From Malus domestica (taxonomy: Eukaryota > Streptophyta > Magnoliopsida > Rosales > Rosaceae), in assembly GCF_042453785.1 (NCBI RefSeq), contig NC_091673.1:5110501-5174500 (forward strand): a stretch of DNA of 64,000 nt. The letters run 5' to 3'. Position numbers and translations under genes: made by a program. The notes under the pieces were generated by a model. It saw nothing but the letters and a program-made list of their open reading frames with translations. It had not been told where the DNA came from and made no database searches. Positions 26,879 to 64,000 of the stretch are shown one piece after another (within the stretch, counting starts at the first letter, position 1; every line of letters starts with the position of its first letter).

Positions 26879-26883
26879 AAGAG

Positions 26884-27674: not shown

Positions 27675-27716
27675 GACTCTCTGCTTCTCGGTAGAAGTTT
27701 TGGGCAAACAGAAATC

Positions 27717-29629: not shown

Positions 29630-30536
29630 ATCTACTCTGGAGACAGAAATCGAAATCTTAATCCAATGTCTTCACATGAAGTCGTAGAATCATTATACAA
29701 GAATTTTCTTAATGTAGTTCGAATTAACCAGGATTAATTTGTTTTGTGCAATTTCTGTCTCCCATCTGGGTTGAGATCCTATTAATTCGCTCTTAGATTA
29801 TGTTAATTTGACATAATTAATCTAAATAGATGGCTAAGAAAACATATTCCAGAAACATAAATTGTTAGCAAAATACAAGATTAAAGAGGCTGGTGTAGGG
29901 GGTACCTCCAAATGTGTGCTTCCAATGGATTCAGAAACTGCTGTCGGACTCTGTTTCTTTGGAAACTTTGAGGATTCTCTCTTCCCTAGTAACCTCTGCA
30001 TGTATGGAACCCATACTTTTGACACGTGTCACTACCTGAAATGTGTTGCATTTCTGACTCACCACTTGTCACGAGTTGGTAAGAGTTCAGTTGGGCCTGG
30101 CCCAGGATACACAAACCACTGTGAAGTTTTAGCTCTGCATTTGTTCTGTTTTTTGCCCTTGCCCAAAACTTTGGTTTCCCATTTATTTGGATTTGAGATT
30201 CTGTAGCTTTAACTTATAACTATGTAATTTGTATAATAATTTTGTGTTTAGTAGAAGTTGGTGTTCAATTTTTGACATGATTATTGAATATTAGAATTGT
30301 GATTAGTGGATTATTGGAAAATTAGAATTGTGATTAGTGGATTGTTGGAATATTAGAATTGTGATTAGTGGATTGTTGGAATATTAGGATTTTGATTAGG
30401 AGAATAGAAAATGGTATGAATTTAAGCTGATTCGATAAAATTTTACAACTTGAAATAGTAAAGAAGATAGAGAGATTGATGGGTTTTTGTTACTTTCTCT
30501 GCATCTCCCACACGTTCTGTTTAACAAACAGATGTC
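29630..30536. other. Intergenic between tandem gamma genes, copy A promoter
   Basis: A tandem repeat of about 31 bp (attagaattgtgattagtgg core, three units plus a partial) lies at 30289-30392. The rest is AT-rich with no coding potential. Confidence 0.6.
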
Positions 30537-32574
30537 TCACTGCCTCATTATCTGCTCCTTAGCAAACCCCAAGTAGACATCAAAGTGATTGGGTGGTTCA
30601 AATATGAAGCAAGAAATCACATCTCTGAGTGTAATCACACCAACAACTTCTCCTTCATCATCCACCACGTACACTCTGTGAACCGATTTGGAAGCAAGAG
30701 TTTCAATCACATCGCCGAGAGTCGACTGCAGATTGCATGTAATTGGTAATATTTGTCTTCCCTGCCTTTCTGAGATTGTGTTCATGAAGTCCCTAACACT
30801 GAGATTCCTGAAAGAAAAGGGTAACAAGTTAAGTTCGATTTCACATTGGGAAGTGATTTCCACGCACGGTAAACCCTTTTCTCCTCAGGCGCACGCCTGT
30901 TTGTTTCTGGCCTTTAGATTGAGTAAATCTAGGGAAATCAAGGGACAAGATAATAACGTGCTGAAGGAGAAAAAAGGGTGTGCGGATATTATTTCCCTTT
31001 CGTGGTTGATTGACTCTGCCGAGTGGTAAAAGTAAAACCACGCATTGATTTTATTTCTTTGACAGAAATCAGTGCATGCAGATGAGGTCCAGAGTTTGGT
31101 TTCGGTACCTGAAATTGTTGAAGAGCTCTGGTTTCAGAAGAGAGAATCTGATATCGCTTATGCTTACATTACCAACTATCTTCTTCTTTGGCTCCTGCAC
31201 AACTGGAAGCCCACCAATTTGGTTCTCTCTCATTTTCTTGAACGCTTCAAGTACCAGATCATCGACATTGGTGCTAATAACCTGCCCAAGAAACAATGCA
31301 ACATTCATATCGAAATTCCAGATTCGCTAGTCAGCCAGAACCAGAAGAACGTTATGGTAACACGGCCAAGATTACCTCAATGGAGGACATAAAAGGAAGT
31401 CCCAGGTCAGAGATGGACTTTGCAGCAATGCAGTCGAACCATTCCATTCCTTTGCATCCCTCAAGACCCTGAACAACTGCTGATTGTGTGATGAAGTTCT
31501 TAATATCGGGTTGGCCCAATTCTATTACAGGCACATTTCTCATCCTATATTTTGAGAGTAGTAGCAAGACGGTCAACATTGAACTATCTGTCCCTACCGG
31601 AAGAAATGACTCCCAGCGAAAGGATTTCAGTATTGATCTTACCTGAAACAGTCAAGTAAATATTGTCGGCTTCGAAACTAATACTCTTGGATATAGATCG
31701 ATGCAGCAATGTTGTTGTCATCTTCTTGGTAAAGAATGAACTTACTGTGGTTGTCTTGAAGGGTTCATCTTGTAGTATAACGCTGTCGAGTTCTTCGCTC
31801 AGTTTATCAGCATCTGTGGGAGAATCTCTGCCCTCTCCTTTGTCTTCAGCTGCACCTGTTAAACAATACGGCTTTCACCAATGAGGTGTTTGGCTAACGT
31901 TGAGTCATAATCGTGCGGATTTAACAAACCATTCGAGTCACATTTCACCTATTTTTCCAACTGCGCTGCCAGCCACGGCAGAGCAAACTGCTGCTGCAGT
32001 TAGGCCTGCAAGAGCAGCAGGACCAGTGACGCCCAGAGCAACTGCTCCAATAGCGCCCATGGCTCCTGCACCGCCAACTACAGCCGCGGTTGAGTGAGCC
32101 GAAGGAGAAAATGCACTGGTCTCCAACACCCAGAGAAGAATGGCGGAATAATCCACGATTCCCAGGTACCTCTCCCTCCAATCTGCACTTGCATCTGCTT
32201 CCGGGTTTCTCACAGTAGCTGACAAAATGTGGTGGTTAGACAGAGTCTTTACTGCTTCAGCAATTGATGTATCCGCTTGAATCTCCACCACTGCAAATTA
32301 TAATTCATGATATAATCCTAGTTTTAAAGGGCACTGTTTCGTTTTGGCCAATCATTGATTAAAGCAGCTAATCGTTGGTATTATTATTACCTTTGCCTCC
32401 AGGAACTCCTTGGAAAGATGAGACTGGAACTTTTGAAAATGCAAATGTTAAATTTTCTTGTAGGGGACGAGATAATTTCTTCCGGGACTGGATCGTGTCG
32501 AAGTAGGCATCGTAGGATGAAATTTTAGGACTTGTGCCCTTCACCTCTTGTTCTTGGGGTTGTGCATCTGCCAT
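30537..32574 (-). CDS. SnRK1 gamma-type four-CBS protein, copy B
   Basis: Exons 32391-32574, 31949-32290, 31746-31855, 31376-31642, 31109-31281 and 30537-30807 join in phase to 448 aa. It is clearly paralogous to copy A along its whole length (ISSYDAYFDTIQSRKKLSRP, YRMRNVPVIELGQP, SVHRVYVVDDEGEVVGV). It also keeps the Gly/Ala-rich insert (VVGGAGAMGAIGAVALGVTG). An additional intron (31856-31948), absent from copy A, falls just after that insert. Same-orientation tandem pair indicates local duplication, old enough for intron and sequence divergence. Both copies look intact. Confidence 0.88.
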
Positions 32575-45765: not shown

Positions 45766-46029
45766 GTGCGATGGACATAGGAGTGTGTTAGCTTTTTATT
45801 ACTTTTTTTCTATTTTTTATTATATTAAACTTTTGTCATTTATTAAATAAAGTAAAAAGATGATTTTTTGTTAAAATAAAATTAATTCAAGTTTTTTTCA
45901 TTAATACTCCTAATTAAATCACGAATCTCAAAAATTAAACTAATTTAACGACAATTAACGAAGTGGCGAGCATCAAAGTATTCCTATTGTTTTAAGAGTC
46001 AGGGTGCAGCCACAGTTATGGTTTTTGTT

Positions 46030-46710
46030 AAAGGGTGTGCTATCCACACACCTCAAATTACTTCTCACACACCCTTTGTTAATTTTTGTCCGTTGATCTT
46101 CTTTAATTAATCCGATCCGACAGCCAAAAATTAGAAGGGTGTGTGAGAAGTAAAATAGGGTGTGTAGATATCACACCCCTTTGTTAATATTGACCCAAAG
46201 AGAAGAAAAATTAGTAAATTACAATACTTTGCAAATACAATAGAATAGAGTTACAATATTAGTTATTATATTATTGGGCCAGCCCAATTAACAAAAGGGT
46301 TGTGATATCCACATATCAATTTTTTCTCACACACCCTTTGTTAATTTTTGTCCGTTGATCTTCTTTAATTAATCCGATCCGACATCCGAAAATTAGAAGG
46401 GTATGTGAGAAGTAAAATAGGGTGTGTGGATATCACACCCCTTTGTTAATATTGATCCAAAGAGAAGAAAAATTAGTAAATTACAATACTTTGCAAATAC
46501 AATAGAATAGAGTCTTACAATATTAGTTATTATATTATTGGGCTAGCCCAATTAACAAAAGGGTTGTGATATCCACACATCAATTTTTACTTCATACACA
46601 CTTTTCTAATTTTCGGTCGTCGGATCGGATGAATTGAAGAAGATCAACAGATATAAATTAATAAAGGGTGTGTGAATAAAAAAGGTGTGGATAGCACACC
46701 CCTAAACAAA
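46030..46710. repeat. MITE in three copies, two within a 263-bp tandem duplication
   Basis: A hairpin-like element (gggtgtg...ggatatcacacccct ends; ttaattaatccgatccgaca centre) occurs at about 46032-46188, 46298-46441 and 46560-46708. The first two share identical flanks (ttagtaaattacaatacttt), so they arose by tandem duplication of MITE plus flank. The third is inverted or recombined internally. Confidence 0.7.
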
Positions 46711-46748
46711 ATAGTCTAGACGTTTCCCCTTCCAGCCTCCTGCTTCCC

Positions 46749-46786: not shown

Positions 46787-47445
46787 ATGGCAGGTTTTGA
46801 TTTGATGTATGTTGCACATGTACCAGAGACTCTTTCGTCTGCTGGGTTTACTGGTGTTGGGAGCAACTTCACACCATATGAAGAAGACCGGCTAGCCGAG
46901 TACCTATGGAATAAAATAATAGGAAACCCATGTCCAGTGACAGAGGCAACTTCCGAGATATCGTTGGGAGGGTAGGCTCTGTGTCCTTTGATGATTCGTG
47001 TAGGTAAACAAAAATAAACTACAACATTATACTATTTTTGTTATTGTTTAATTAACTCATGAATTGCTATTTTATTAGAGTTGTTCAAGTTTGGAGTTAT
47101 GAAGAATACGGGTATTTCTATATCCTGCTCGAGGCTGGGATTGAAGAAGCAAGCTTAAGGCCGTGCTATTTTGGGCTCTGGAAGCTTGCAGGTGAACGGA
47201 CTGTGCAGCAACAGAGTATTACAGTAGGTCATGCCAAAGAATGGGATTATCATATGTTTGGGGTGCCTCCAGGTCTGAAACCTGCATTTCGAATGACCGA
47301 ATACCGCTTGAATCCGGCCATTGTTCCTCTGGAAGCAAGCGGTATTCGGTCATTCGAAATGCGGGTTCCAGACCTGGAGGTGCCCCAAACATATGATAAT
47401 CCCATTCTTTGGCATGACCTACTTGCAAGCTTCCAGAGCTCATAA
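46787..47445 (+). pseudogene. NAC-like fragment, left arm of palindrome A
   Basis: ATG 46787 opens MAGFDLMYVAHVPETL and runs through FTPYEEDRLAEYLWNKIIGN to SLGG, where CAG in sister copies has become TAG (premature stop). After a consensus 80-bp intron-like gap, coding resumes as ASLRPCYFGLWKLAGERTVQ, HAKEWDYHMFG and AFRMTEYRLNP, the order of NAC subdomains B to E in very divergent form. It then reads straight into the reverse arm of the palindrome. NAC proteins are plant transcription factors, but the DNA-contacting WKATG core is not conserved (WKLAGER), so activity is doubtful. Confidence 0.5.
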
Positions 47446-47746
47446 TAGCACGGCCTTACGGCTTGCTTCTTCAATCCCAGCCTCGGGAAGGATATAGAAA
47501 TACCAATATTCTTCAGAACTCCAAACTTGAACAACTCTAATAAATAGCAATTCATGAGTTAATTAAATAATAAAAAAAAAGTATGATGTTGTAGTTTATT
47601 TTTGTTTACCTACATGAATCATCAAAGGACACGTAGCCTGCCCTCCCAACGATATCTCGGAAGTTGCCTCTGTCACTGGACATGGGTTTCCTATTATTTT
47701 ATTCCATAGGTACTCGGCTAGCAGGTCTTCTTCATATGGTGTGAAG
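46867..47746. repeat. Palindrome A: inverted NAC-like repeats
   Basis: Left arm 46867-47310 and right arm 47336-47746 are reverse complements with high identity around a 25-bp spacer (aatccggccattgttcctct...). The centre reads cgaataccgcttg / caagcggtattcg. Confidence 0.9.
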
Positions 47747-48070
47747 GAGTTGGCTTTGCTGGCGGTTCGACAGTCAATCCTGGTGGTGGCTTTGCTCGTG
47801 GTGGGGGTGTCAGTGAAGGTGGCGGCTTTGGTGGTGGTTCTGCTGTGTCTCGAGGTGGTGGCTTTGCTCGTGATGGGGGTGTCAGTGAAGGTGGCGGCTT
47901 TGGTGGTGGTTTTGCTGTGTCTCGAGGTGGTGGCTTTGCTCGTGGTGGAGGTGTCAATGAATGGGGTGGCTTTGGTGGCGGTTCTGCTTTGTATCAAGGT
48001 GGTGGAGGTGTCAACGAAGGAGGTGGCTTTGCTGGCGGTTCGACCGTCAATCATGGTGGTGGCCGTAATA
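47596..48070. repeat. Minisatellite open in several frames (Gly-rich / Thr-Ala-rich)
   Basis: Repeats of about 66 bp (ggtggtggctttgctcgtgg, gtcagtgaaggtggcggctt) occupy 47760-48060. The plus strand reads a glycine-rich protein (SRGGGFARGGGVSEGGGFG). The minus strand reads either a Pro-rich frame or a Thr/Lys/Ala-rich frame fused in frame to the NAC-like FTPYEEDLLAEYLW (152 codons, 48054-47596). Which strand was coding is undecided. The glycine-rich frame looks most like a known protein class (cell-wall or RNA-binding glycine-rich proteins). Confidence 0.55.
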
Positions 48071-49001
48071 TCAGGCGTATACTCGAGTACGTATATTATT
48101 CCGTTCAGTCAGTTCTGTATTTGAGAGCAATGATCACCGTTAGATTGCTGTAATGAAATGAACCCATGAATTTTCCAGACAGTTACTTTTGGGTAATCGA
48201 TAGGAATCAATTCGTATTGGATCGAAAAGAAAAAAAAAAGAAAAAAAAATGGAAATTATCCCTTTTTCACGTAGTGTTTCCCTCCCACATCTAATTCGTA
48301 CTCGAAAGGCTAACACGTTTTGCACACGCGCGGCACGAATAGGTTATACTTTTATCTCCCGTTTTGCACACGCGCATCAGGACTCATAAATCAAGTTGCT
48401 GTCATAGCAATCATGTGTGCCGTTATATCGAAATGAAATGGAGTGCCTTTCTCTCTCTTCAGCCACTACCAAAATTTTGGGTCAACAAACTAAAATCATC
48501 ACTGACAACGTGGACCCCCCAGTTAATAATAAACTAGCATATAGACACACACAAACTGTGTGAGAAAATTTTTTATTTTTATTTTTGAAATAAAAGGATA
48601 AAAGAAGAGAGTAATAAATAAGGTGGAAGTGGGTAGTTTATTTATTTATTTTAGAATAAAAATAAAATTATTTTCACACACAAAGTGTGAGACATATGCT
48701 AGTTAGTTATTACTTTGTCGAACAATTGTTTTAGTCTATTTTTTTTATTAACTTTTCTGAAATGACTTTTAGGGAGTTATATTAATTTAATTTTACAACC
48801 ATTTGTCGAACAATTATTTTGGTCTAATTTTTATTGGATTAATTTTCTGAAGTGAATTTTAGGGAGTTATTTTAATTTAATTTTAAGAATATTATAGCTA
48901 AAAGAAGTTAAATTTTTACATAATTTGCAAAATCACACACAGAAAATGTTTGACTATGAAAAAGCCAAAAATGTTTGTTAAAATTGTTTGAGAACAAGTA
49001 A

Positions 49002-49171
49002 GGGTAATGTTAGAGAGATTAAATTTGTAAACAAAGTTTTGAAAACTAAAAGACATGAAAGTTGATGATTGATTTATTACTTAAACGTTGATAAACGTAT
49101 TCATTCTTATTGGTAACACGTTATTTAGTTTTCAAATTTAGTCTCTAAATTTAGTCTTCCTAGCATTACCC
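49002..49171. mobile_element. MITE, GGGTAATGTTAG ends, 9-bp duplication
   Basis: The target duplication AACAAGTAA lies at 48993-49001 and 49172-49180; the ends are GGGTAATGTTAG / CTAGCATTACCC. 170 bp, non-coding, Mutator-type by duplication length. It is also present at the equivalent site near 59435-59600, so it predates the segmental duplication. Confidence 0.8.
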
Positions 49172-49334
49172 AACAAGTAATCGTCAAGTCTACAAGAAAT
49201 TGAGTTGCGGCTCTGGGTTCGATAACTATTGGATCCGGATTTTTTTTCCTCATTTTCTTAATAGAGTTGGGAATTGTGATCGATGGAGCCAGCTCGATAA
49301 CAGTTTCAACTCTCGTGTGCAACGTGTAAAAAAA

Positions 49335-49530
49335 TCATCACCAATGCCAGTGGTTAATGACAAATTTTATGCTCGTATTTCATACGGCACGTCTTGAGTT
49401 TGATTTCTGGTGTGGTGAATCATAAGATGATGGCCAAAGGAAGCTGAAATGCATTTGTGAGTCTTTCTAGCCCCGAAAAGGTAGACGACCATGACGAAGC
49501 CACCAATTGGTCTCATTAAAAAAACAAAAA
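49335..49530 (+). mobile_element. SINE-like element
   Basis: A-box-like TGCCAGTGGTTAATGAC, B-box-like GAGTTTGATTTC, and an A-rich tail (ttaaaaaaacaaaaacaaaa). The counterpart is near 59765-59965. Confidence 0.5.
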
Positions 49531-49780
49531 CAAAATCTTAATCTAGCAAACTTCCATAAACAAAATCTTAATCTAGCAAACTTCCATAAGTTAACTTTAT
49601 GCCAAATCCAAAATTCATGTTATGATGAAATTGGTCCTTCCATTGTCATGCCAATCAACCACTGGCAGGGCCAATAAAGGCATAGGAGAGTCGCTTGATT
49701 TTTCTCACTTTTATTTGTATTTTGTTTTTTAGTATATCAAATTTCTCAAAATTTAGACCCGTCTGGTCCATTTAAAAATA

Positions 49781-49933
49781 GGGAACTTTAACGAAAAGCA
49801 CCTGGTACTATTCACTTTAACGAAAAACCACATTTTTACACTAAAAAGTCAATTCTGGTACTATTCACTTTACCCTTTATTTTGTCCTTATCATTAAAAC
49901 TTAAAGTTTTCAAGCCCTTTTCATTAGTTTTCC
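49781..49933 (-). mobile_element. MITE present only in duplication copy 1
   Basis: Starts GGGAACTTTAACGAAAAG, ends TTAGTTTTCC, with a perfect 10-bp duplication TTTAAAAATA (49771-49780 and 49934-49943). The equivalent site in copy 2 (near 60395-60410) reads catttaaaaatatgat with a single TTTAAAAATA: a clean empty site. Confidence 0.9.
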
Positions 49934-50135
49934 TTTAAAAATATGATACTTTGATTCTTTAAACTATATCATTAGCTATACAACAAATGAATGAACATTA
50001 ACGATTATACAAATTTCTCTTTATTTATAGAATTACTAACATATACTTTCTAAAAATTATTACTAATTGAAATATCCCTTATTCTTTGATCCATATCAAG
50101 CTCTAACTCTTCTTAGACGAAGTTGGTTTTTTTTT

Positions 50136-50295
50136 TTTTAGGAGAACTAATAAAAATAACTTGAAAACTTTGATTTTTAACGATGAAGACAAAATAAAAT
50201 GTACAGTGAATAGTACCAAGATTGACATTTTAGTATAAAAATATGATTTTTCATTAAAGTGAACAGTACCATGAGCTTTTAGTTATAGTTCCCTT
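50136..50295 (+). mobile_element. MITE of the same family, shared by both copies
   Basis: aggagaactaataaaaataa to agttatagttccc. The counterpart is at about 60575-60735, so this insertion predates the duplication. Confidence 0.65.
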
Positions 50296-50765
50296 TTTCT
50301 TTTTCTCTTTATTATATCAGCTAATCACTGATTAATGTAATCAACTAACACTTATTATGCAATTCCTTACGAGATCAGAGTAGCAACATGCTTCTGGGCC
50401 TCAGACGGGGCCTCAGACGGGGTATTTTGATATGGGTAAAAAATAACTAAAAATTGAACTTATTTCAAAAGTAAAAAATCACTAAAAATTGAACTTATTT
50501 CAAAAGTAGCCCTATAAAATTGGACCTATTTCAAAATTTCCCATCAAATATCACAGAATACTAGGGCTCCATCTCCTGCTAAAAAAACTAAGACTACTAA
50601 TAGTCAACAGCTCATTTGGTTAATTACTTCACTCTTTAATCTGCACTAAATTTTCCATAATGTTGTACCCAAAATTTGGAGACACATAATAACAGGACAT
50701 ACACAACGAACGATTAACATCAAACCATCATCATTTGCACTTTTAAGGTTCCCTTAGTGTCCCTA

Positions 50766-53639
50766 CTATCTGCTCCATTCAAAATCTCCTCCGTATTTAA
50801 TACCAGAGTTAATGGCACGGCCCGAATCTTCTGGTTTTATGGAGTTTGCATAGGCATGCCAACCTAAAATGTACGGCAAGATAAACTGCAAAGAACAGAA
50901 AACGTATGAGTCCTAACCAGTAAGGATTCAGCAAATGCAGGTATGTTTTATACAAGGATAATTGGGTGGGTGGATGAGTGTGTGAGAGATGGAGGAGGAG
51001 GAGAGAGAGACATCACACATTGAAAGCTGATTTGAGAACAGCAAATTCTGCTCTGGTGATAGGAATATAAATGCTCTCGTCCAAGTTGATAAGCTTGTTT
51101 TGAACACCTTGATTATGCCATAATGATAACAGCAATATATGTTAAAAAAACTTAAGCACCCTCCAATAAGTATAGTAAATGGCTTGTGTGCAATAAAATT
51201 GTGCTGATTTAACAGAAACTATACGTTGGAAACAGACCTCGCCTAAAAAAACGTCATCACCTAAATTTCTTCCATGTATTGCATATCCATTGTTTAAACA
51301 TGCAGCATAATGGTGTTTAGTTATAAACTTTACCGCTGAAAAGTCTATAGCTTGATGAATAAATGGGAAAAGTTTGCCAAAAGCATTGATGTACCAACGA
51401 TTGACTATACTTTAAATGACTGAAAATTTAAAAATCGCAGCATCAACTTACATATTATGGCATAATAAGGTGAAGATAAATATATGTAATGTTCGCCACC
51501 AAGATTTCAAGGATAAGACAATTACTGAGGTTAAAGAAATGGCCAGATCCGTCTGGAAGAGGCTCCACCTTCAATACCTTCCTGACCTTGCCCTCATCAC
51601 TGCAAAACAAAACATTTTAGTACATATTACATCACTTACATTCTGCACCATCAACAAGTCGGAGATGCACGAAAGTATAATCATGTATATTTACATATCT
51701 GTCATCAGATGTTCATATCATTAGGGATAGACTATCAAACTTAGTACAGTCACAATGAACAAATACTTGTCCCACTCTGCTTGTCTAGATATCTTAATAA
51801 TTTCAAAGAGAAAATGAAGACATTTGTATTGAATACCAGATTATTACTGTTCCATATATCACCACATGAGACCACCGGTTATTGCAGTCACTCAGATTCA
51901 ATGAATGCTGATTAAGAGAACCATATACAAATAATCCAACACAGGCAACACCACCACTGTTACTGAAATCCATGATAACACAAAGAAAGGGGGAGAGTGA
52001 AGGAGTTACCTTTTCCCCTTATAAGTATCATGGAAAAATTCAAGGGACTCCTTTGAGCCAAGGCTAACCAGGCTTCCAATTTCTGTCACTGATAGCGAGA
52101 ATACCTACACAAACCAATTGTTGTTTTGCATAATTAATGATCATTATAATTACAAAGTTACAATTATAGTAAGTGGCCATATGCACTTAACAAAAGGTTT
52201 TATTAACGGTGGACTGGTATGCGGTAGCCATACACCTCAATGTTTTTAATGGAAGTATTATGTAACGACTAGCCAATAATCAAAGTTATAGGATTTCACA
52301 ATTTGGAAACAGAGGCTATACAAAGGAAATATTTGACCATTGACATTACTAAAAGTTTTCAGTTCTTATCATTCTTGTAAATTCATTATTCATATGAGCA
52401 AACGCAGCATGAATCACCTGCTTTCTGCTCCAGTCATATACACGAACACCTGCTGCTGGAGCAAACTGAAGTAGCACAAAACCTTCCCGGGAAAGTTTGA
52501 ATGCCCCTGACTGTCCGGGACACCAAACCATCAAAGAACCATAACATATTAACGGTTGAGAAATTATAATCTGGCCAAAGAACCATATTCTTACAACGAA
52601 CTAAATAAGGCATCAATCAAATCAAACATACATCCAAGGGGGTGAACTCTGGAGCTTTGGGCTCTACAGTAAGAGCTGCCTTTCCCTTGTATATCGAGTG
52701 ACCCACGTAAATCCTAGGTGCCATCCCAGTCACTACACACATAAACCAAACAAATACATTTATGAATCACACTATAAAAGGTCGTACCCAGTGCACAAGG
52801 CTCCCGCTTTACGCAGGGACTGGGAGAGGTGAATGTCGGCTAGCCTTACCCCATTTATGGAGAGGCTGCTCCCAAGTCTCGAACCCGAGACCTACCAAAT
52901 TCTGCCTAGCCATCATTAAACTGGTTCATCAATTTGTAAGCTTTAATCGCTCAATATCCCTGTTTGGTTGCACAGAAATTAAGTTCCCGTTTGGAACTGC
53001 TTCCATAATAAGCACTTCTAATCATGCAGAAAAATTTATTAAAAACCCAAGTGCTTCACAGAGCAGGTGCTTCTCCCGAAAGCATTTCTACAACCAAGAA
53101 GCGCTGTCGATTGTCAGAAAGCACATTTAGAGATTGCATAAACAATCCCAAACCGGCCCTAACTTCAAAATGGTCAAATTCAACCCTGTCCTTCATGCTA
53201 ATTGGGCTCCTAATCTAGCCAAACAGCTACACAACACTCAATCAAGTGCAAAATTTTCATGCTTTCTTACTCTTCATTCGCTCAGCTACATGTAACCAAA
53301 CAATCCCTTAACTCTATCCATTTCCAAACCATTTTTCTACAGCAGCACAGGATAAAATAGTCCAAGGACAGAGTAAGTACCTCCGGCGGGAGTTTGCGAA
53401 GCAGGAGAAGGCTTGTTCGGGGAAGCGGCGGTGCTGGTTCTCTGCTGGTCGAAATACTCCGACTGGCGACATTTCAAGGAGAGCCTCTTCGTCGACGAGC
53501 TCGGACTCGGAGCGAAGCCGAAGGTGTTGGTGCTGAAAACCCTACCTCTACTGGAGAGCTGCGAAGACAGGAACTGGCTAGGGCTTTTGTGAGGGCTTTG
53601 TGCTGTCACAGGGGAAGATAGCGAGTGTAGTTTCAGCAT
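50766..53639 (-). CDS. WHY1: WHIRLY1-type ssDNA-binding protein, copy 1
   Basis: Exons 53381-53639, 52632-52732, 52418-52510, 52010-52104, 51526-51599, 51019-51107 and 50766-50885 join in phase to 276 aa, all GT-AG. The start is the second ATG (MLKLHSLSS), because the ten codons before it are arginine-rich and unlike a transit peptide. Exon 1 is a Ser/Pro-rich plastid transit region. The Whirly domain has the ssDNA-binding KGKAAL motif (residues 102-107), SGAFKLSREGFVLLQFAPA, YDWSRKQ, and VEPLPDGSGHFFNLS, and it ends with an acidic-aromatic tail (GGDFEWSR). Whirly proteins form tetramers on ssDNA, stabilise plastid genomes and can act in the nucleus on defence promoters. Introns carry an Au-type SINE and a MITE. 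It is intact. Confidence 0.95.
52778..52920 (-). mobile_element. Au-type SINE in WHIRLY1 intron 1
   Basis: Contains blocks I recall from Au SINEs (ggtcgtacccagtgcacaag, cccgctttacgcaggg, ggagaggctgctcccaagtc). On the minus strand the B box is GGTCTCGGGTTCGAGAC and the A box TGGCTAGGCAGA. An identical copy is at 63204-63346. Confidence 0.75.
52957..53165. mobile_element. MITE-like block in WHIRLY1 intron 1
   Basis: Left ccctgtttggttgcac and right aacaatcccaaaccggccct resemble ends of a MITE family that inserts widely in plant introns; inner aagcacttct / agaaagcac segments pair imperfectly. Identical in copy 2. Confidence 0.45.
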
Positions 53640-54470
53640 CCTGAACACTCTCCCCCTCTCTCTGTGCAACTCTGTCTCTTCCCCTGTATTATGCTTTAAG
53701 GAGAAAATTGTAGCACTATTTTCTTAATTTTAACTCAATTTAAACGTTGATATTTTAACTAAAAGAGAAAATTGCAGCACTAGTCCCAATTGAAGCGTTG
53801 GTCTTTTAATTAAAAATTCGTGATTGTTGGTTTCTTGACTCATCCAAATATACACCTATGGTCATTTTTGTAAATTCTATCGAAACTTCAATCAAAATTA
53901 GTCATGTTGGAATGATTATTGTTACAATTTAGTTAAAGTAGAGTGATCATTTCTTCAATTAGATTAAGGTTGGGGGATCATTGCTCTAATTGAGCTAAAG
54001 TTAATGGGTCATTTCTATTATTTTCTCATTTTTGTTTTTCATATTTGCCTTTTGATTCAACCTCACGTGTGTAGCACGTATCTTATTTTGACGAAAGTTC
54101 TGACGGAGTTAACTTAAAAGACCATAGCTGCACGTTTGATGAGTTAAAAGGGCAATCAGTTGAAAGACCATTGCTCTAGTCAGTTATAATTAAAGGGATC
54201 ACTGCTACAATTTTTCTTGTTTTAAAACAATGGCGGGCCGGATTTTAGGCTGGTTGCTGACGTTTTATTTTTACATTTCGGCCCAAGATGATTAACTAGT
54301 GGGCTGGTTGATAATGGCATGCCATGTCGACACATAAGGAGGGGAAGAGGCGCGTGTTGTCTAATTTTCAGCCACACGCGAGACGTCAGTGTAGCAACGC
54401 GACGCGACTCTCCCACTGTCAAAGCCGCTTGCAGCCTGCAAGGTCTCGGAGCTTTTGTTTTTCATGTCAA
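53640..54470. promoter_or_regulatory. Divergent promoter region, WHIRLY1 and DnaJ-like gene
   Basis: The two genes start 831 bp apart on opposite strands. Most of the gap (about 53702-54220) is a MITE-like block whose ends aaaattgtagcactatttt and, on the other strand, aaaattgtagcagtgatccc are inverted, with inner repeats of the form ttaaagttaatgggtcattt. The bases 54230-54470 are GC-richer and probably contain the DnaJ-like gene's promoter and leader. Confidence 0.5.
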
Positions 54471-56606
54471 ATGTCGTCGCTTTGTTGCTCTGGACTCGCA
54501 CTGCAATGGAGGCACAGGAGCGTCCGCTTCTTTCTTTTTCTTCGCTCCAACACAAGGACTAGTTGCAGTCGCAGCAGTATTACGTTCGTGCCCAGAGTCA
54601 CTTCATCTTCAACCAACGACGACGCCGTCTCAGCCCCCAAACCACCGCAGGTACCCTCTCTCTCTTGAATTTCCCGGAAAATCTGACTGCATTTTTTTTT
54701 TATTGATGGTGTTTTGGGATTGGTATGGCGGTTGGGTTATGATCCTTCCGAAGACTTATTCGGGCTCGAGGCCAATTCAAAGCCGAGGTTTGTAAATTTG
54801 TAAAATTTCCACCTCATATAATTCCATTTGTTTATAGTATCTCACTCTTATTTCATAATTAACGGACGATATTCTATTTTAATCTAATCTAAACTACGGA
54901 GGTTAACATGACCCGACACACCTTGGACACATGAAATAAAATTCCAACATTGACCCTTGGTGTATCGGGTCGTGTTGCTGGCACACCTGCTCACTGGAAA
55001 ATTTCTCGGTAGATAGGGGCACATCCGCTCTAGCTAACGTGGCTGCGCGCACTGTCTGCTTAGATTATGTCTAAGTTGGCACTTAGACTTAAAAAATGTA
55101 TCTTAATTTCAGGAATGTTAGTCTGGGTGCGCGCAAACCAAGGTCGTGGTTTGGTCCAAACGGGCAGTATATCAGGGAGCTGCCTTGCCCGAGTTGCCGG
55201 GGGAGGGGATATACTCCTTGTTCGGAGTGTGGTATAGAAAGGTCCAGATCAGATTGTTCACAGTGTGTTGGGAAGGTTTGTGCTTTTTCTAAAGCTTATT
55301 GTGAAGAGTTGCTTATAGATAAGATAATGTGCTATTTTGCTGTTGGTTATCGGTTCGGACATTATTGTTCCTGAATCTTTTATCTTTCGTTTGCTTCGGT
55401 TAGATGATTAAGAATGTGCTATAGCTATGAATAAAGCATAAGGCATTGATTTTCAAGGGAAACTCGACGCGTTAACCTTTCACTTATCGTAACAGGGCAT
55501 AATGACTTGTCGTCAGTGTTCGGGAGAGTGTGTCATATGGGAAGAGTCGATTGATGAACGACCATGGGAGAAAGCCCGCTCAATGTAACTTCTTAGCCTT
55601 CCTACTTCATCTTGCACTCTTGGTTTGTATTTAGTATCTAGTTTATAACAATTTAATCACTGCTTTTTTATCTGGTCATTTTAGTTAGACTTTAGTTTCG
55701 GAAATGATGTCTTAAACCGAAAGATTGACATGATCACTGAAGCAAGTATTTCTACCTAAATTTTGCTTCGTATTTTCTTCTGTTTAGCTTTTACATGTCA
55801 AGTATTTTGAGTTCTTTCATGATGCAGTGTAATTTTGGATTTCTTATTTTAACTTTTCCCCCTCCCAGTTCTCCGCTCAGAGTGAAGGAAGATGATGAAG
55901 TTGACAATTTAGACGTAAAGCTAGTAAAGAGAAAATCGAAGCGAGTGTACCAATCACCACCACCTGAAGTTGGACTGAAGATCAGCCGGTCTCTAAAAGT
56001 TAGTTTATCCGCTTCAACCTTACCAGAAATGTTGCATGTAAATTGGATGACATGAATACGTATAAGATCACGTATTAATTGCAACCTAGAGCTATACCTA
56101 TATATGATACCTGCAATTGTAGCTATCAGAACTCTACAGACGCTTGTTATTGTTATTGGCTTGATGCTCGGTTTTGCAATTGATATATTAGTTCATAAAC
56201 TGTTACTTAATAGAGGACACGGCATAAATATTGAGTTCCATATCATGAATTTAATCTTCTTTGTCTAGTTGGATGATTGCAGAGTCTGAATGCCAAAACC
56301 GGTGTATTTAGTAAGAGAATGAAGATCATCCATCGCGATCCTATGCTTCATGCTCAAAGAGTGGCTGCAATTAAGGTCCAGATTTTAAGATTAAGTACTT
56401 TTGGGAACTTCCAATATTTAACTTTGATGAATTTTGTGCTCAAACATTCATTTCGAACTTCAAAATAAAGAGGATTTAATTGCATTGGTTTTATATGTAT
56501 TGCAGAAAGCCAAAATGAACTGCTGCAGCAAGAAAGCATACTTCGGAGGCTTTAAAAGCTTTCTTTAGTGACCCAGAAAACCGTCGCAAAAGGAGCTCCA
56601 TGACGG
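54471..56606 (+). pseudogene. DnaJ-type Cys-rich zinc-finger protein, frameshifted and 3'-truncated
   Basis: Exons 54471-54650, 54771-54787 (a 17-bp micro-exon), 55113-55275, 55496-55584, 55869-55998, 56283-56375 and 56506-56606. The N terminus is transit-peptide-like. Four CXXCXGXG-style motifs follow (CPSCRGRGYTPCSECG, CSQCVGKG, CRQCSGEC), as in plastid BSD2-type chaperones, then a basic C-terminal region (KTGVFSKRMKIIHRDPMLHA). In the last exon one extra base in AAAATGAAC (56512-56520) shifts the frame and gives a stop at 56566-56568. The other frame continues as RKHTSEALKAFFSDPENRRK to a GT donor at 56607. No further exon is found before palindrome B begins at 56737, so the 3' end appears lost. 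A short 244-residue product is still possible. Confidence 0.7.
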
Positions 56607-56736
56607 GTAAGTTCTCATACTCCATTGTAGATTTACTGTTGGTAGTTTGTCACTGAATCTGCATACTAGGATTACATCCATTCTTTAGTACAGGCACATT
56701 TTGTAACCTTATTTTCCATCTGTTCTATTGCCTTAT

Positions 56737-58916
56737 TTTGTTGACCCAAAATTTTGGCAGTGGCTGAAGAGAGAGAAAGGCACTCCATTTCATTTTGATA
56801 TAACGGCACACATGATGGCTATGACATCAACTTGATTTGTGAGTGCTGACGCGCGTGTACAAAACGGGAGATAAAAGTATAACCTATTCGTGCCGCGCGT
56901 GTGAAAAACGTGTTAGCCTTTCGAGTACGAATTAGACGTGGGAGGGAAACACTACGTGAACGCAGAAAAAGGGATAATTTCCATTTCTTTTTTCTTTTCT
57001 TTTTTTCTTTTCGATCCAGTACGAATTAATTCCTCTAGATTACCCAAAAGTAACTGTCTGGAAAATTCTTGGGTTCATTTCATTACAGCAATCTAACGGT
57101 GATCATTGCTCTCGAATACATAACTGACTGAACTGAATAATATACCTACTTGAGTCTATGCCTGATATTACAACCACCACCAAGATTGACAGTCGAACCG
57201 CCAGCCAAGCCACCTCATTCATTGACACCTCCACCACCTTGATACAAAACAGAACCGCTTCCAAAGCCACCCCATTCATTGACACCTCCACCACGAGCAA
57301 AGCCACCACCTCGGGACACAACATAACCACCACCAAAGCCGCCACCTTCACTAACACCCCCACCACGAGCAAAGCCACCACCAGGATTGCCTATCGAACC
57401 GCCAGCAAAGCCACCTCCTTCACACCATATGAAGAAGACCTGCTAGCCGAATACCTATGGAATAAAATAATTGGAAACCCATGTCCAATAACAGAGGCAA
57501 CTTCCGAGATATCGTTGGGAGGGCAGGCTTCGTGTCCTTTGATGATTCCTCTAGGTAAACAAAAATAAACTACAACATCATACTATTTTTGTTATTATTT
57601 AATTAACTCATGAATTCCTATTTTATTAGAGTTGTTCAAGTTTGGAGTTCTGAAGAATACTGGGTATTTCTATATCCTGATCGAGGCTGGGATTGAAGAA
57701 GCAAGCGTAAGGCCGTGCTATTCTAGGCTCTGGAAGCTTGCAGGTGAACAGACTGTGTAGTAATCGAGTATTACAGTAGGTCATGCCAAAGAATGGGATT
57801 ATCATATGTTTGGGGCGCCTCCAGGTCTGGAACCTGCATTTCAAATGATCGAATACCGCTTGGATCCGGCCATTGTTCCTCTGGAAGTATTTGGTCATTC
57901 GAAATGCGTGTTCCAGACCTAGAGGCACCCCAAACATATGATAATCCCATTCTTTGGCATGACCTATTGTAATACTCGGTTGCTGCACAGTCCGTTCACC
58001 TGCAAGCTTCCAGAGCCCAGAATAGCACGGCCTTACGCTTGCTTCTTCAATCCCAGCATCGGTCCCAGCATCGGTCAGGATATAGAAATACCCAGTATTC
58101 TTCAGAACTCCAAACTTGAACAACTCTAATAAAATAGCAATTCATGAGTTAATTAAATAATAACAAAAATAGTATGATGTTGTAGTTTATTTTTGTTTAC
58201 CTAGAGGAATCATTAAAGGACACGGAGCCTGCCCTCCCAACGATATCTCGGAAGTTGCCTCTGTCACTGGACATGGGTTTCCTATTATTTTATTCCATAG
58301 GTACTCGGCTAGCAGGTCTTCTTCATATGGTGTGAAGGAGGTGACTTTGTTGGCGGTTCGACAAGCAATCTTGGTGGTGGTTTTGCTCGTGGTGGGGGTG
58401 TCAGTGAAGGTGGCGGCTTTGGAGGCGGTTCTGCTTTGTATCAAGGTGGTGGAGGTGTCAATGAAGGAGGTGGCTTTGCTGGCGGTTCGACCGTCAATCC
58501 TGGTGGTGGCCGTAATATCAGGCGTTGACTCGAGTAGGTATATTATTCAATTCTGTATTCAAGAGCAATGATCACCGTTAGATTGCTGTAATGAAATGAA
58601 CCCATGAATTTTCCAGACAGTTACTTTTGGGTAATCGAGAGGAATCAATTCGTACTGGATTGAAAATAAATGGAAATTATCCCTTTTTCTGCGTTCACGT
58701 AGTGTTTCCCTCCCACGTCTAATTCGTACTCGAAAGGGCTAACATGTTTTTCACACGCGCGGCACGAATAGGTTATACTTTTATCTCCCGTTTTGCACGC
58801 GCGTCAGGACTCACGAATCAAGTTGCTGTCATAGCCATCATGTATGCCGTTATATCGGAATGAAATGGAGTGCCTTTCTCTCTCTTCAGCCACTGCCAAA
58901 ATTTTGGGTCAACAAA
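56737..58916. repeat. Palindrome B: 2.2-kb inverted repeat with NAC-like arms
   Basis: Left arm 56737-57862, spacer 57863-57887, right arm 57888-58916. The arm ends (ttgttgacccaaaatttt / aaaattttgggtcaacaa) and the flank around cacgtagtgtttccctccca are reverse complements. Each arm holds, from outside in, an AT-rich flank, the Gly-rich minisatellite and the NAC-like piece. The spacer is the same as in palindrome A apart from one base. The minus-strand 58123-57626 and plus-strand 57158-57568 NAC-like frames remain open but are fragments. Confidence 0.9.
57158..57568 (+). pseudogene. NAC-like fragment fused to minisatellite frame, palindrome B left arm
   Basis: 136 open codons: a Thr/Ala-rich repeat-derived stretch runs in frame into SFTPYEEDLLAEYLWNKIIG and ends SLGGQASCPLMIPLGKQK before a stop inside a probable intron (donor CTAG|GTAAAC). 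It corresponds to 48054-47596 on the minus strand of copy 1. Reading-frame conservation across copies may simply reflect recent origin. Confidence 0.4.
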
Positions 58917-61191
58917 CTAAAATATTCCACTGACAACGTGGACCCCCCAGTTAATAATAAACTAGCATATAGGCACACAAACTGTGTGAGAAAAGTTTTT
59001 ATTTTTATTTTTGAAATAAAAGGATAGAAGAAGAGAGTGATAGCGAATGTGGAAGTGGGTAGTTTTTTTTTTTTTTATATTTTAGAATAAAAATAAAATT
59101 ATTTTCACACACAAAGTGTGGGACAATGCTAGTTAGCTATTACTTTGGCGAACAATTGTTTTAGTCTAATTTTTTTTATTAACTTTTCTGAAATGACTTG
59201 TAGGGAGTTATATTAATTTAATTTTACAACCATTTGTCGAACAATTATTTTGGTCTAATTTTTATTGGATTAATTTTCTGAAGTGAATTTTAGGGAGTTA
59301 TTTTAATTTAATTTTAAGAATATTATAGCTAAAAGAAGTTAAATTTTTACATAATTTGCAAAATCACACACAGAAAATGTTTGACTCTGAAAAAGCCAAA
59401 TATGTTTGTTAAAAATGTTTGAGAACAAGTAAGGTTAATGCTAAAGAGACTAAATTTGTAGACAAAGTTTTGAAAACTAAAGGATATGAACGTTGATGAT
59501 TGATTGATTACTTAAACATTGATAAACATATTCATTCTTATTGGTAACACATTATTTAGTTTTCAAATTTAGTCTCTAAATTTAGTCTTTCTAGCATTAC
59601 CCAACAAATAATTGTCAAGTCTACAAGAAATTGAGTTGCGGCTCTGGGTTCGATAACTATTGGATCCGGGTTTTTTTTCCTCATTTTCTTAATAGAGTTG
59701 GGAATCGTGATCGATGGAGCCAGCTCGATAACGGTTTCAACTCTCGTGTGCAACGTGTAAAAAATTATCACCGGATGCTAGTGGTCAATAACAAATTTTA
59801 TGCTCGTATTTCATACGGCACGTCTTCAGTTTGATTTCTGGTGTGGTGAATCATAAGATGATGGTCAAAGAAGGTTGAAATGTTTTTGTGAGTCTTTCGA
59901 GGCCCGAAAAGGTGGACGACCGTGATGAAGCCACCAACTGATCTCATTTAAAAAAAAAACAAAATCTTAATCTACCAATCTTCCATCAGTTAACTTTATG
60001 CCAAATCCAAAATTCATGTTATGATGAAATTGGTCCTTCCATTGTCATGCCAATCAACCACTGGCAGGAGAAATTTTTAGGTGTTCCCGTCACCCCACAT
60101 CACCATCACACTTGGTGTACCCATCTAATCAGGGGATGCCACGTTTCCCATTAAAGTGTTTTTTTAATTGATTTTCTTAAAAAATAAATCAGAAATATTT
60201 TTTAATGGAAAACGTGGTATCTCCTGATTGGATGGGTACACCAAGTGTCCATGGCGATGTGGGGTGACGGGAACACCTAAAAATTTCTCTACTGGCAGGG
60301 CTAGTAAAGGCATAGAAGAGTCGCTGGATTTTTCTCACTTTTATTTGTATTTTTTTTTTGGTATATCAAATTTCTCTAAATTTTGACCCGTCTGGTCCAT
60401 TTAAAAATATGATACTTTGATTCTTTAAACCATATCATTAGCGATATCAAGCTCTAACTCTTTATTTATAGAATTACTAACATATACTTTCTAAAAATTA
60501 TTACTAATTGAAATATCCTTATTCTTTGATCCATATCAAGCTCTAACTCTCCTTAGACGAAGTTGGTTTTTATTTTTAGGAAAACTAATAAAAAAGACTT
60601 AAAAACTTTAAGTTTTAACGATAAGGACAAAATAAAGGGTGCAGTGAATAGTATCATGATTGACTTTTTAGTGTAAAAAGATGATTTTTCATTAAAATGA
60701 ACATTACAAGAAGTTTTTCGTTAAAGTTCCATTTTTCTTTTTCTCTTTATTATATCAGCTAATCACTGATTAATGTAATCAACTAACACTTATTATGCAA
60801 TTCCTTTTGAGATCAGAGTAGCAACATGCTTCTGGGCCTCAGACGGGGTATTTTGATATGGATCAAAAGAAACTAAAAATTGAACTTATTTCAAAAGTCA
60901 AAAGTCACTAAAAATTAAACCTATTTCAAAAGTAGACTTATAAAATTGGACCTATTTCAAAATTTCCCATGAAATATCACAGAATACTAGGGCTCCATCT
61001 CCTGCTAAAAAAACAAAGACTACTAATAGCCAACAGCTCCTATGGTTAACTACTTCACTCTTTAATCTGCACTAAATTTTCCATTAATGTTGTACCCAAA
61101 ATTTGGAGACACATAATAACAGGACATACACAACGAACGATTAACATCAAACCATCATCATTTGCACTTTAAGGTTCCCTTAGTGTCCCTA
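58917..61191. other. Intergenic, WHIRLY1 copy 2 3' side
   Basis: Homologous to 48490-50765. No gene; it holds shared MITE and SINE copies plus one new MITE. Confidence 0.6.
60068..60289. mobile_element. MITE present only in duplication copy 2
   Basis: The ends GAGAAATTTTTAGGTGTTCC and its exact complement at the right continue inward as an almost perfect hairpin (gtcaccccacatc / gatgtggggtgac, ttggtgtacccatc / gatgggtacaccaa). ACTGGCAG flanks both sides (60060-60067, 60291-60298), with one extra T at 60290. Copy 1 has a single uninterrupted accactggcagggcc near 49660-49675. Confidence 0.92.
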
Positions 61192-64000
61192 CTATCTGCT
61201 CCATTCAAAATCTCCTCCGTATTTAATACCAGAGTTAATGGCACGGCCCGAATCTTCTGGTTTTATGGAGTTTGCATAGGCATGCCAACCTAAAATGTAC
61301 GGCAAGATAAACTGCAAAGAACAGAAAACGTATGAGTCCTAACCAGTAAGGATTCAGCAAATGCAGGTATGTTTTATACAAGGATAATTGGGTGGGTGGA
61401 TGAGTGTGTGAGAGATGGAGGAGGAGGAGAGAGAGACATCACACATTGAAAGCTGATTTGAGAACAGCAAATTCTGCTCTGGTGATAGGAATATAAATGC
61501 TCTCGTCCAAGTTGATAAGCTTGTTTTGAACACCTTGATTATGCCATAATGATAACAGCAATATATGTTAAAAAAACTTAAGCACCCTCCAATAAGTATA
61601 GTAAATGGCTTGTGTGCAATAAAATTGTGCTGATTTAACAGAAACTATACGTTGGAAACAGACCTCGCCTAAAAAAACGTCATCACCTAAATTTCTTCCA
61701 TGTATTGCATATCCATTGTTTAAACATGCAGCATAATGGTGTTTAGTTATAAACTTTACCGCTGAAAAGTCTATAGCTTGATGAATAAATGGGAAAAGTT
61801 TGCCAAAAGCATTGATGTACCAACGATTGACTATACTTTAAATGACTGAAAATTTAAAAATCGCAGCATCAACTTACATATTATGGCATAATAAGGTGAA
61901 GATAAATATATGTAATGTTCGCCACCAAGATTTCAAGGATAAGACAATTACTGAGGTTAAAGAAATGGCCAGATCCGTCTGGAAGAGGCTCCACCTTCAA
62001 TACCTTCCTGACCTTGCCCTCATCACTGCAAAACAAAACATTTTAGTACATATTACATCACTTACATTCTGCACCATCAACAAGTCGGAGATGCACGAAA
62101 GTATAATCATGTATATTTACATATCTGTCATCAGATGTTCATATCATTAGGGATAGACTATCAAACTTAGTACAGTCACAATGAACAAATACTTGTCCCA
62201 CTCTGCTTGTCTAGATATCTTAATAATTTCAAAGAGAAAATGAAGACATTTGTATTGAATACCAGATTATTACTGTTCCATATATCACCACATGAGACCA
62301 CCGGTTATTGCAGTCACTCAGATTCAATGAATGCTGATTAAGAGAACCATATACAAATAATCCAACACAGGCAACACCACCACTGTTACTGAAATCCATG
62401 ATAACACAAAGAAAGGGGGAGAGTGAAGGAGTTACCTTTTCCCCTTATAAGTATCATGGAAAAATTCAAGGGACTCCTTTGAGCCAAGGCTAACCAGGCT
62501 TCCAATTTCTGTCACTGATAGCGAGAATACCTACACAAACCAATTGTTGTTTTGCATAATTAATGATCATTATAATTACAAAGTTACAATTATAGTAAGT
62601 GGCCATATGCACTTAACAAAAGGTTTTATTAACGGTGGACTGGTATGCGGTAGCCATACACCTCAATGTTTTTAATGGAAGTATTATGTAACGACTAGCC
62701 AATAATCAAAGTTATAGGATTTCACAATTTGGAAACAGAGGCTATACAAAGGAAATATTTGACCATTGACATTACTAAAAGTTTTCAGTTCTTATCATTC
62801 TTGTAAATTCATTATTCATATGAGCAAACGCAGCATGAATCACCTGCTTTCTGCTCCAGTCATATACACGAACACCTGCTGCTGGAGCAAACTGAAGTAG
62901 CACAAAACCTTCCCGGGAAAGTTTGAATGCCCCTGACTGTCCGGGACACCAAACCATCAAAGAACCATAACATATTAACGGTTGAGAAATTATAATCTGG
63001 CCAAAGAACCATATTCTTACAACGAACTAAATAAGGCATCAATCAAATCAAACATACATCCAAGGGGGTGAACTCTGGAGCTTTGGGCTCTACAGTAAGA
63101 GCTGCCTTTCCCTTGTATATCGAGTGACCCACGTAAATCCTAGGTGCCATCCCAGTCACTACACACATAAACCAAACAAATACATTTATGAATCACACTA
63201 TAAAAGGTCGTACCCAGTGCACAAGGCTCCCGCTTTACGCAGGGACTGGGAGAGGTGAATGTCGGCTAGCCTTACCCCATTTATGGAGAGGCTGCTCCCA
63301 AGTCTCGAACCCGAGACCTACCAAATTCTGCCTAGCCATCATTAAACTGGTTCATCAATTTGTAAGCTTTAATCGCTCAATATCCCTGTTTGGTTGCACA
63401 GAAATTAAGTTCCCGTTTGGAACTGCTTCCATAATAAGCACTTCTAATCATGCAGAAAAATTTATTAAAAACCCAAGTGCTTCACAGAGCAGGTGCTTCT
63501 CCCGAAAGCATTTCTACAACCAAGAAGCGCTGTCGATTGTCAGAAAGCACATTTAGAGATTGCATAAACAATCCCAAACCGGCCCTAACTTCAAAATGGT
63601 CAAATTCAACCCTGTCCTTCATGCTAATTGGGCTCCTAATCTAGCCAAACAGCTACACAACACTCAATCAAGTGCAAAATTTTCATGCTTTCTTACTCTT
63701 CATTCGCTCAGCTACATGTAACCAAACAATCCCTTAACTCTATCCATTTCCAAACCATTTTTCTACAGCAGCACAGGATAAAATAGTCCAAGGACAGAGT
63801 AAGTACCTCCGGCGGGAGTTTGCGAAGCAGGAGAAGGCTTGTTCGGGGAAGCGGCGGTGCTGGTTCTCTGCTGGTCGAAATACTCCGACTGGCGACATTT
63901 CAAGGAGAGCCTCTTCGTCGACGAGCTCGGACTCGGAGCGAAGCCGAAGGTGTTGGTGCTGAAAACCCTACCTCTACTGGAGAGCTGCGAAGACAGGAAC
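61192..64000 (-). CDS. WHY1: WHIRLY1-type ssDNA-binding protein, copy 2, cut by window end
   Basis: Exons 63807-64000 (partial; the start codon would fall near 64065), 63058-63158, 62844-62936, 62436-62530, 61952-62025, 61445-61533 and 61192-61311. Each lies exactly 10,426 bp from its counterpart in copy 1, with the same splice sites and identical residues wherever compared, introns included. All visible exons are open. It would be a second functional WHIRLY1 if the duplication is real and the promoter is included. Confidence 0.92.

What the first reader, a model, noticed from the sequence alone, without database searches (positions are those of the whole stretch)
50600..64000. Sharp identity step inside a direct segmental duplication carrying WHIRLY1
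From about 50,755 to 53,574 the first copy matches 61,182-64,000 with constant spacing and no visible difference, introns included. Just to the left (48.5-50.7 against 58.9-61.1 kb) the copies differ by many substitutions, indels and two mobile-element insertions. One duplication event should give even divergence. The step suggests gene conversion homogenising WHIRLY1, two different events, or an assembly join of two haplotypes.
Basis: partly seen in the sequence, partly recalled or inferred. Interest (0 to 1): 0.8.

Follow-up and report, generated by a model that had tools for sequence, protein, structure and literature searches.

The report
Recently homogenised tandem pair of WHIRLY1
An apple-like plant carries two side-by-side copies of the gene WHIRLY1; the DNA on one side of them has long been drifting apart, yet the genes are letter-for-letter the same, most likely because one copy recently overwrote the other, which is a known kind of event seen here at a new gene.

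Summary
The step is real. Two direct units, A (46,867-56,734) and B (57,418 to 67,216, past the window), differ at 214 of 3,340 aligned bases (6.4%) left of 50,625, at 2 of 4,678 between 50,625 and 55,303, and at 24 of 1,430 (1.7%) at the right end. Within this, 50,742-54,389 (3,648 bp) shows no difference. It holds the seven-exon, 276-aa WHIRLY1 gene, introns and upstream region included. Constraint cannot explain it: WHIRLY1 non-coding DNA differs by 16% from the chr16 homeolog. An allelic mosaic is unlikely: left-flank divergence is 5 to 7.5 times published apple heterozygosity and 36-54% of homeolog divergence, and the junction is N-free with almost no shared sequence. Best reading: an old tandem duplication whose WHIRLY1 core was recently homogenised by ectopic recombination, with an older event at the right end. 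This is a clear example of a known process. Without reads or other Maleae genomes, an assembly contribution is not excluded.

The parts
46867..56734 (+). Unit A of the direct tandem duplication
   Evidence: Self-BLAST and MAFFT: matches B 57,418-67,216; left end truncated inside an inverted repeat
57418..64000 (+). Unit B, part inside the window (continues to about 67,216 = C13:5,177,716)
   Evidence: sequence beyond the window read from L009
46867..50624 (+). Diverged left flank of unit A (partner 57,418-61,050): 214 of 3,340 aligned bases differ, many indels
   Evidence: apart from short MITE-like pieces, 48,500-50,740 matched only A and B among the 40 candidates scored of 8,745; a 96-bp piece is also near the chr16 gene
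50742..54389 (+). Perfectly identical block, copy A: 3,648 bp, no substitution or indel
61168..64000 (+). Perfectly identical block, copy B, part inside the window (continues to 64,815)
50625..55303 (+). Homogenised segment found by segmentation: 2 substitutions and 2 one-base indels, 4,678 aligned bases
   Evidence: Best model by BIC has 3 segments; indels
55304..56734 (+). Right end of unit A, 24 of 1,430 aligned bases differ from B (1.68%)
50766..53639 (-). WHIRLY1 copy A: 7 exons (53639-53381, 52732-52632, 52510-52418, 52104-52010, 51599-51526, 51107-51019, 50885-50766), 276 aa, intact
   Evidence: Splice model made by hand; Pfam Whirly E 2.3e-60; nearest solved chains potato p24 1l3a and WHY1 4koo
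61192..64000 (-). WHIRLY1 copy B (starts at 64,065, beyond the window): CDS identical to copy A
54471..56734 (+). Second, divergently placed gene-like sequence, copy A: exons with CxxC pairs, frameshifted relative to B near 56,516 and cut off at 56,734, so probably a pseudogene. In B an open frame with CCHC zinc knuckles follows at 67,241, taken here to be its 3' exon
   Evidence: zf-CCHC hits on the B frame, but no Pfam hit on the upstream exon in either copy
52779..52896 (+). SINE-like insertion in a WHIRLY1 intron, in both copies, absent from the chr16 homeolog
56733..58920 (.). 2.2-kb inverted repeat with glycine-rich repeat frames at the left end of unit B; partial counterpart 46,867-48,493 in A. 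The A/B junction (56,734/56,735) lies at its outer tip
49771..49943 (+). MITE-like insertion in A only, flanked by a 10-bp direct repeat, empty site in B
60060..60290 (+). Fold-back MITE-like insertion in B only, with a 9-bp direct repeat at its edges, empty site in A

Best explanation
An old (post-genome-duplication) direct tandem duplication of about 10.4 kb on chromosome 13 of an apple-like genome gave two WHIRLY1 copies. Their left flanks have evolved apart since. A stretch of at least 3.65 kb and probably 4.7 kb, covering WHIRLY1, its introns, the region upstream and the start of the neighbouring gene, was recently made identical by ectopic recombination between the copies, most likely non-reciprocal gene conversion. 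An earlier homogenisation affected the right end. Shown: the duplication, the three divergence tiers, intact identical genes, lack of constraint. Inferred: that the low tier is due to transfer, its direction, single or repeated events, and the dates.
For: Segmentation 6.41% / 0.04% / 1.68%, strongly preferred over one rate (BIC 1,914.6 against 2,246.0, and 1,127.8 against 1,242.9 with clustered differences merged). Not constraint: chr13 against chr16 WHIRLY1 non-coding DNA differs at 327 of 1,998 sites. Left flanks carry copy-specific mobile insertions with empty sites in the other copy, so they have evolved separately. The intronic SINE in both copies shows 1 substitution and 1 one-base indel from the family majority over about 118 bp, against about 3.8 substitutions expected per lineage if it were older than the duplication; suggestive only. 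Tandem plant genes kept alike by conversion in the coding part are known: Arabidopsis halleri HMA4 (PMC3749932, passages).
Against: The block is long for one conversion: experimental mitotic interlocus means are mostly 50 to several hundred bp, one data set over 1 kb (PMC3924818, passages); an indirect Arabidopsis meiotic estimate is 379-830 bp, though the same paper cites 1.8-2.0 kb for yeast meiosis (PMC3464199, passages). No second genome, reads or population data were available. The step falls within about 125 bp of the end of homology to chr16 and 24-141 bp beyond the WHIRLY1 stop codon, a coincidence that plain random conversion does not predict. The SINE test is weak (P about 0.12 for at most 1 substitution).
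Confidence: 0.72

Rival explanations
1. Unequal crossing over: a transient three-copy (or one-copy) chromosome arose by misaligned crossing over and shrank back to two copies, leaving a segment of one unit copied into the other. The outcome is the same as conversion but the tract can be of any length.
For: The tract is long for conversion. The direct tandem arrangement allows it, and several tiers of divergence fit repeated exchanges.
Against: Only two full-length copies were found (40 of 491 candidates scored), and self-comparison of 143.5 kb shows no third unit beside them. It needs at least two events for what one conversion does.
Confidence: 0.14
2. Assembly artefact: the two units are the two alleles of one locus laid end to end, and the step is a mosaic of a homozygous core and a highly heterozygous flank.
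For: Apple genomes are heterozygous (0.85-1.28% in PMC7728601, passages), and false duplications from diverged haplotypes occur widely in assemblies (PMC9516828, passages). Neither reads nor a second assembly could be examined here.
Against: Left-flank divergence (6.4%) is 5 to 7.5 times that heterozygosity and 36-54% of the homeolog divergence. No N lies between the units, whereas gaps between copies are listed as a mark of false duplications. The two sides of the join share almost no sequence, so an overlap assembler had nothing to merge on.
Confidence: 0.09
3. Assembly collapse: the two WHIRLY1 cores really differ slightly, but one consensus was used for both places in the assembly graph or by polishing.
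For: Exactly zero differences in 3,648 bp, bounded by differing flanks, is what a shared graph segment would give.
Against: Collapse needs copies that already differ by little, so the step from 6.4% would remain and only the age of homogenisation would change. Two substitutions and two indels inside the low segment show the copies were not forced to be the same throughout.
Confidence: 0.05

Closest known systems
Ectopic (interlocus) gene conversion and concerted evolution in tandem duplicates; plant example HMA4 of Arabidopsis halleri (PMC3749932, passages read)
   Same: Tandem copies whose gene body is kept alike by exchange
   Different: HMA4 has three copies, population data and promoters that were analysed separately; here there are two copies in one assembly, no population data, and the identical block also takes in the upstream region. 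Inter-copy HMA4 coding identity was 99-99.3% against 100% here
Exchange among the RPP8 resistance genes of Arabidopsis thaliana (PMC6771003, passages read)
   Same: Direct tandem duplicates in which exchange and divergence are both at work
   Different: RPP8 is a highly polymorphic resistance gene and its tandem pair exchanges only little; WHIRLY1 is a conserved single-strand DNA-binding protein gene
WHIRLY1 of other plants (WHY1 chain 4koo, potato p24/PBF-2)
   Same: Full Whirly domain; the KGKAAL motif that a review gives as common to higher-plant WHIRLYs (PMC9070903, passages) is present in the protein
   Different: Two identical tandem copies plus a chr16 homeolog; [quoted passage not shown]

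Membership tests
Interlocus gene conversion between tandem duplicates | Segment of the duplicate far more similar than its surroundings, not explained by constraint | tested here: met
Interlocus gene conversion between tandem duplicates | Older divergence on both sides of the tract | tested here: met
   6.41% left and 1.68% right against 0.04%; the right side is lower than the left
Interlocus gene conversion between tandem duplicates | Tract length in the usual range (hundreds of bp to about 2 kb) | tested here: not met
   At least 3,648 bp against published values; overlapping events or unequal exchange could lengthen it. Length is typical, not strictly defining
Interlocus gene conversion between tandem duplicates | Copies group by genome, not by position, across related species | not testable with these tools
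   Only this one genome is held; one search states that it has no relatives here
False (haplotype) duplication in an assembly | Gap between the copies | tested here: not met
   No N in 143.5 kb spanning both units
False (haplotype) duplication in an assembly | Half read depth or single-copy k-mers | not testable with these tools
   No reads available
False (haplotype) duplication in an assembly | Divergence in the allelic range | tested here: not met
   6.4% against 0.85-1.28% published heterozygosity; the right end (1.68%) and the identical core alone would not be far out of range
WHIRLY1 gene | Complete Whirly domain and intact reading frame | tested here: met
   PF08536 positions 1-136 of 136, E 2.3e-60; 276 aa without an internal stop in both copies
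WHIRLY1 gene | Closer to chloroplast WHY1 than to mitochondrial WHY2 | tested here: met
   4koo WHY1 316.7 bits, 4koq WHY3 305.4, 4kop WHY2 184.7
WHIRLY1 gene | Plastid transit peptide and expression | not tested
   No predictor or RNA data used

The most novel reading that the evidence does not exclude
WHIRLY1 in Maleae is kept as a dosage pair by recurrent, gene-sized conversion: each event is bounded by the gene's own terminator on one side and by the neighbouring gene's start on the other, so that the gene and its upstream region stay identical while the left flanks, once broken up by mobile insertions, escape and diverge. The step at the end of WHIRLY1 would then be a stable border between concerted and independent evolution, not the chance edge of one event.
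Probability: 0.2. Interest if true: 0.5.

Novelty: new member of a known kind. Interest (0 to 1): 0.36.

Why it matters
It is a clean natural case in which one pair of duplicates shows three divergence tiers, so an age estimate from the genes alone (zero divergence) would miss an old duplication by millions of years. It makes a sharp prediction for the phased apple and pear genomes: WHIRLY1 copies should group by genome while their left flanks group by position. It also warns that the two WHIRLY1 genes of this genome cannot be told apart by coding sequence in expression or editing work.

Tried and rejected
Constraint as the cause: rejected, since WHIRLY1 non-coding DNA differs at 327 of 1,998 sites from chr16.

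A multi-copy mobile element as carrier of the left flank or the inverted repeat: no support. Apart from its short MITE-like pieces, 48,500-50,740 matched only A and B among the 40 candidates scored of 8,745 (a 96-bp piece at 82-85% also lies near the chr16 gene). 56,733-58,920 matched only this locus plus 36 bp on C15 (3 of 3 candidates scored).

Polarising the tract (which copy was donor): not possible, because the copies are identical. At the left edge the chr16 base agrees with B at 50,624, and chr16 has the base that A lacks at 50,657; the 50,741 indel is not settled.

A paralogue of the second gene as outgroup for the right end: none with useful coverage among 40 scored of 4,228 candidates; matches beyond A and B were pieces under about 420 bases, 64-90% identical. 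Pfam gave no hit for the exon tested from either copy, nor for one frame of the inverted repeat (3 of 5 proteins).

Apple WHIRLY copy number in print: searches for WHIRLY + apple + tandem (20 papers, 15 listed), MdWHY names (2 papers, off-topic by title, not opened) and WHIRLY + Malus domestica + gene family + Pyrus (12 of 1,066 listed) showed no tandem WHIRLY1 pair in the titles and starts of abstracts listed. In PMC7285031 a find gave 12 uses of WHIRLY and no MD13G or MD16G identifier. Most listed papers were not opened, and most papers of subscription journals are not held. Searches on conversion in plants, false duplications and Maleae dates served only to pick papers; a find in PMC11581945 gave no use of 'gene conversion'.

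Haplotype-mosaic artefact: judged unlikely, not excluded (see rivals).

Full report
WHERE IT IS. The window lies at C13:5,110,501-5,174,500 of a 651-Mb, 19-contig genome. From contig sizes, the collinear match between C13 and C16 and recalled knowledge of apple chromosomes I take it to be Malus. To see past the window ends I read C13 from 20 kb before the window to window coordinate 123,500, and 40 kb of the C16 homeolog.

THE DUPLICATION. Unit A (46,867-56,734) and unit B (57,418-67,216) are direct copies about 10.4 kb apart. Two full-length matches of WHIRLY1 were found in the genome, both here; the next is the chr16 homeolog at 82-84% (40 of 491 candidates scored). The A/B junction at 56,734/56,735 falls at the outer tip of a 2.2-kb inverted repeat that matched nothing else apart from 36 bp on C15. 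A's second gene-like sequence is cut there, while in B an open frame with zinc knuckles follows. No N is present in the 143.5 kb of C13 read.

THE STEP. A MAFFT alignment of the two units was binned and segmented. Of 9,448 aligned bases 240 differ. The best model by BIC has three segments: 46,867-50,624 with 214 of 3,340 (6.41%), 50,625-55,303 with 2 of 4,678 (0.04%), and 55,304-56,734 with 24 of 1,430 (1.68%). Merging differences within 10 bp (114 events) gives the same borders within 20 bp. The block with neither substitution nor indel is 50,742-54,389, 3,648 bp. Permutation gave no substitution-free run above 535 (1,088 for merged events) in 10,000 trials, against 3,764 observed. The left change is sharp (8 substitutions between 50,510 and 50,624, then none); the right is graded. 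Right against left differs at Fisher p = 7e-14, and 3e-4 for merged events. A further zero run of 186 aligned bases at 48,770-48,955 inside the left flank appears only in models with a worse BIC.

WHAT THE BLOCK HOLDS. The complete WHIRLY1 gene on the minus strand, 7 exons by a hand-made splice model, 276 aa, with the same intact CDS in both copies; Whirly domain E 2.3e-60; WHY1 and WHY3 score far above WHY2. The perfect block starts 24 bp past the stop codon (CDS end 50,766) and ends about 80 bp before the putative ATG (54,471) of the neighbouring gene. That neighbour looks broken in A: a one-base indel near 56,516 shifts the frame relative to B, and the end is missing. Pfam recognised the zinc knuckles in B but not the upstream exon of either copy, so the gene is not named here.

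WHY CONSTRAINT AND CHANCE FAIL. Against chr16, WHIRLY1 non-coding DNA differs at 327 of 1,998 aligned sites (16.4%, Jukes-Cantor 0.185) and CDS at 47 of 831; 11 neighbouring collinear blocks differ at 965 of 8,373 (Jukes-Cantor 0.125). A/B left flanks are at 0.067, i.e. 36-54% of the homeolog distance. With the rate of 3.9e-9 per site per year that PMC7728601 uses to date LTR elements (passages), the left flanks would have parted about 8.6 My ago, the right end about 2.2 My, and the perfect block less than about 0.1 My ago. These are rough: the same rate puts the homeologs at 16-24 My, younger than the 30-45 My given for the Maleae genome duplication in PMC10681005 (passages), so all dates may be too young by a factor of about two.

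ARTEFACTS. Published apple heterozygosity is 0.85-1.28% (PMC7728601), against 6.4% in the left flank; the right end (1.68%) and the core alone would not be far out of range. Gaps between copies are one mark of false duplications (PMC9516828, passages), and none is present. The two sides of the junction share almost no sequence, so an overlap join of two allelic contigs has no anchor. Consensus sharing in the identical core could hide small differences but would not create the step. None of this replaces reads.

MECHANISM. Conversion explains a segment overwritten inside an older duplicate. The length is unusual: mitotic interlocus means in yeast and rodent systems are mostly 50 to several hundred bp, with one data set over 1 kb (PMC3924818, passages); an indirect Arabidopsis meiotic estimate is 379-830 bp, and the same paper cites 1.8-2.0 kb for yeast meiosis (PMC3464199, passages). 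So either one long tract, several overlapping ones, or a crossover-driven expansion and contraction is needed. The three tiers favour more than one event. The left flanks carry two copy-specific short insertions with direct repeats and empty sites; such breaks in homology could end tracts there (inference). That the left edge lies so near the gene end and the limit of chr16 homology (50,617-50,625) is unexplained; recalled work places plant meiotic breaks preferentially near gene starts and ends, which might account for it.

SUPPORTING HINT. A SINE-like piece in a WHIRLY1 intron is present in both copies, absent from chr16, and differs from the family majority (18 sequences, the window's included) by one substitution and one one-base indel over about 118 bp; beyond that stretch the window copy departs from its relatives at the 3' side. 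If it predated the duplication about 3.8 substitutions per lineage would be expected at the left-flank rate; P for at most 1 is about 0.12. The relatives are 17 of 38 non-window hits, all among the best matches, so this is weak.

VERDICT. This is a known process at a gene for which I found no earlier report in the limited searches made.

Noticed in passing
L004 (C7:8,870,257), L005 (C2:12,903,310), L007 (C12:19,253,639): Fragments of WHIRLY1, up to about 1 kb, introns included, on three other chromosomes. Their long pieces are 92-94% identical to the chr16 gene and 95-97% to each other, and they share flanking sequence, so a piece of the chr16 gene was probably captured by a mobile element and multiplied.
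   Followed up: partly
56733-58920 and 46867-48493: Inverted repeat of about 2.2 kb found only at this locus, with 72-bp tandem units that read as glycine-rich repeats; the partial counterpart in unit A lacks the outer 685 bp of the left arm.
   Followed up: partly
46023-46711: Another palindromic repeat just left of unit A, with relatives elsewhere on C13 and on C16; it may have removed the missing part of the inverted repeat.
   Followed up: no
50617-50766: Three borders coincide within about 150 bp: the WHIRLY1 stop codon, the identity step between A and B, and the limit of homology to chr16.
   Followed up: partly
48770-48955: 186 aligned bases without difference inside the 6% diverged left flank, possibly a small separate conversion patch (not favoured by BIC).
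   Followed up: no
27705-29624 and 30525-32551: A second, older direct tandem duplication in the window, pieces 77-82% identical.
   Followed up: no
19607-19939 with 26291-26623; 24756-25020 with 26615-26879: Two direct repeat pairs at 96% and 98% identity whose right-hand members adjoin, possibly mobile-element ends.
   Followed up: no
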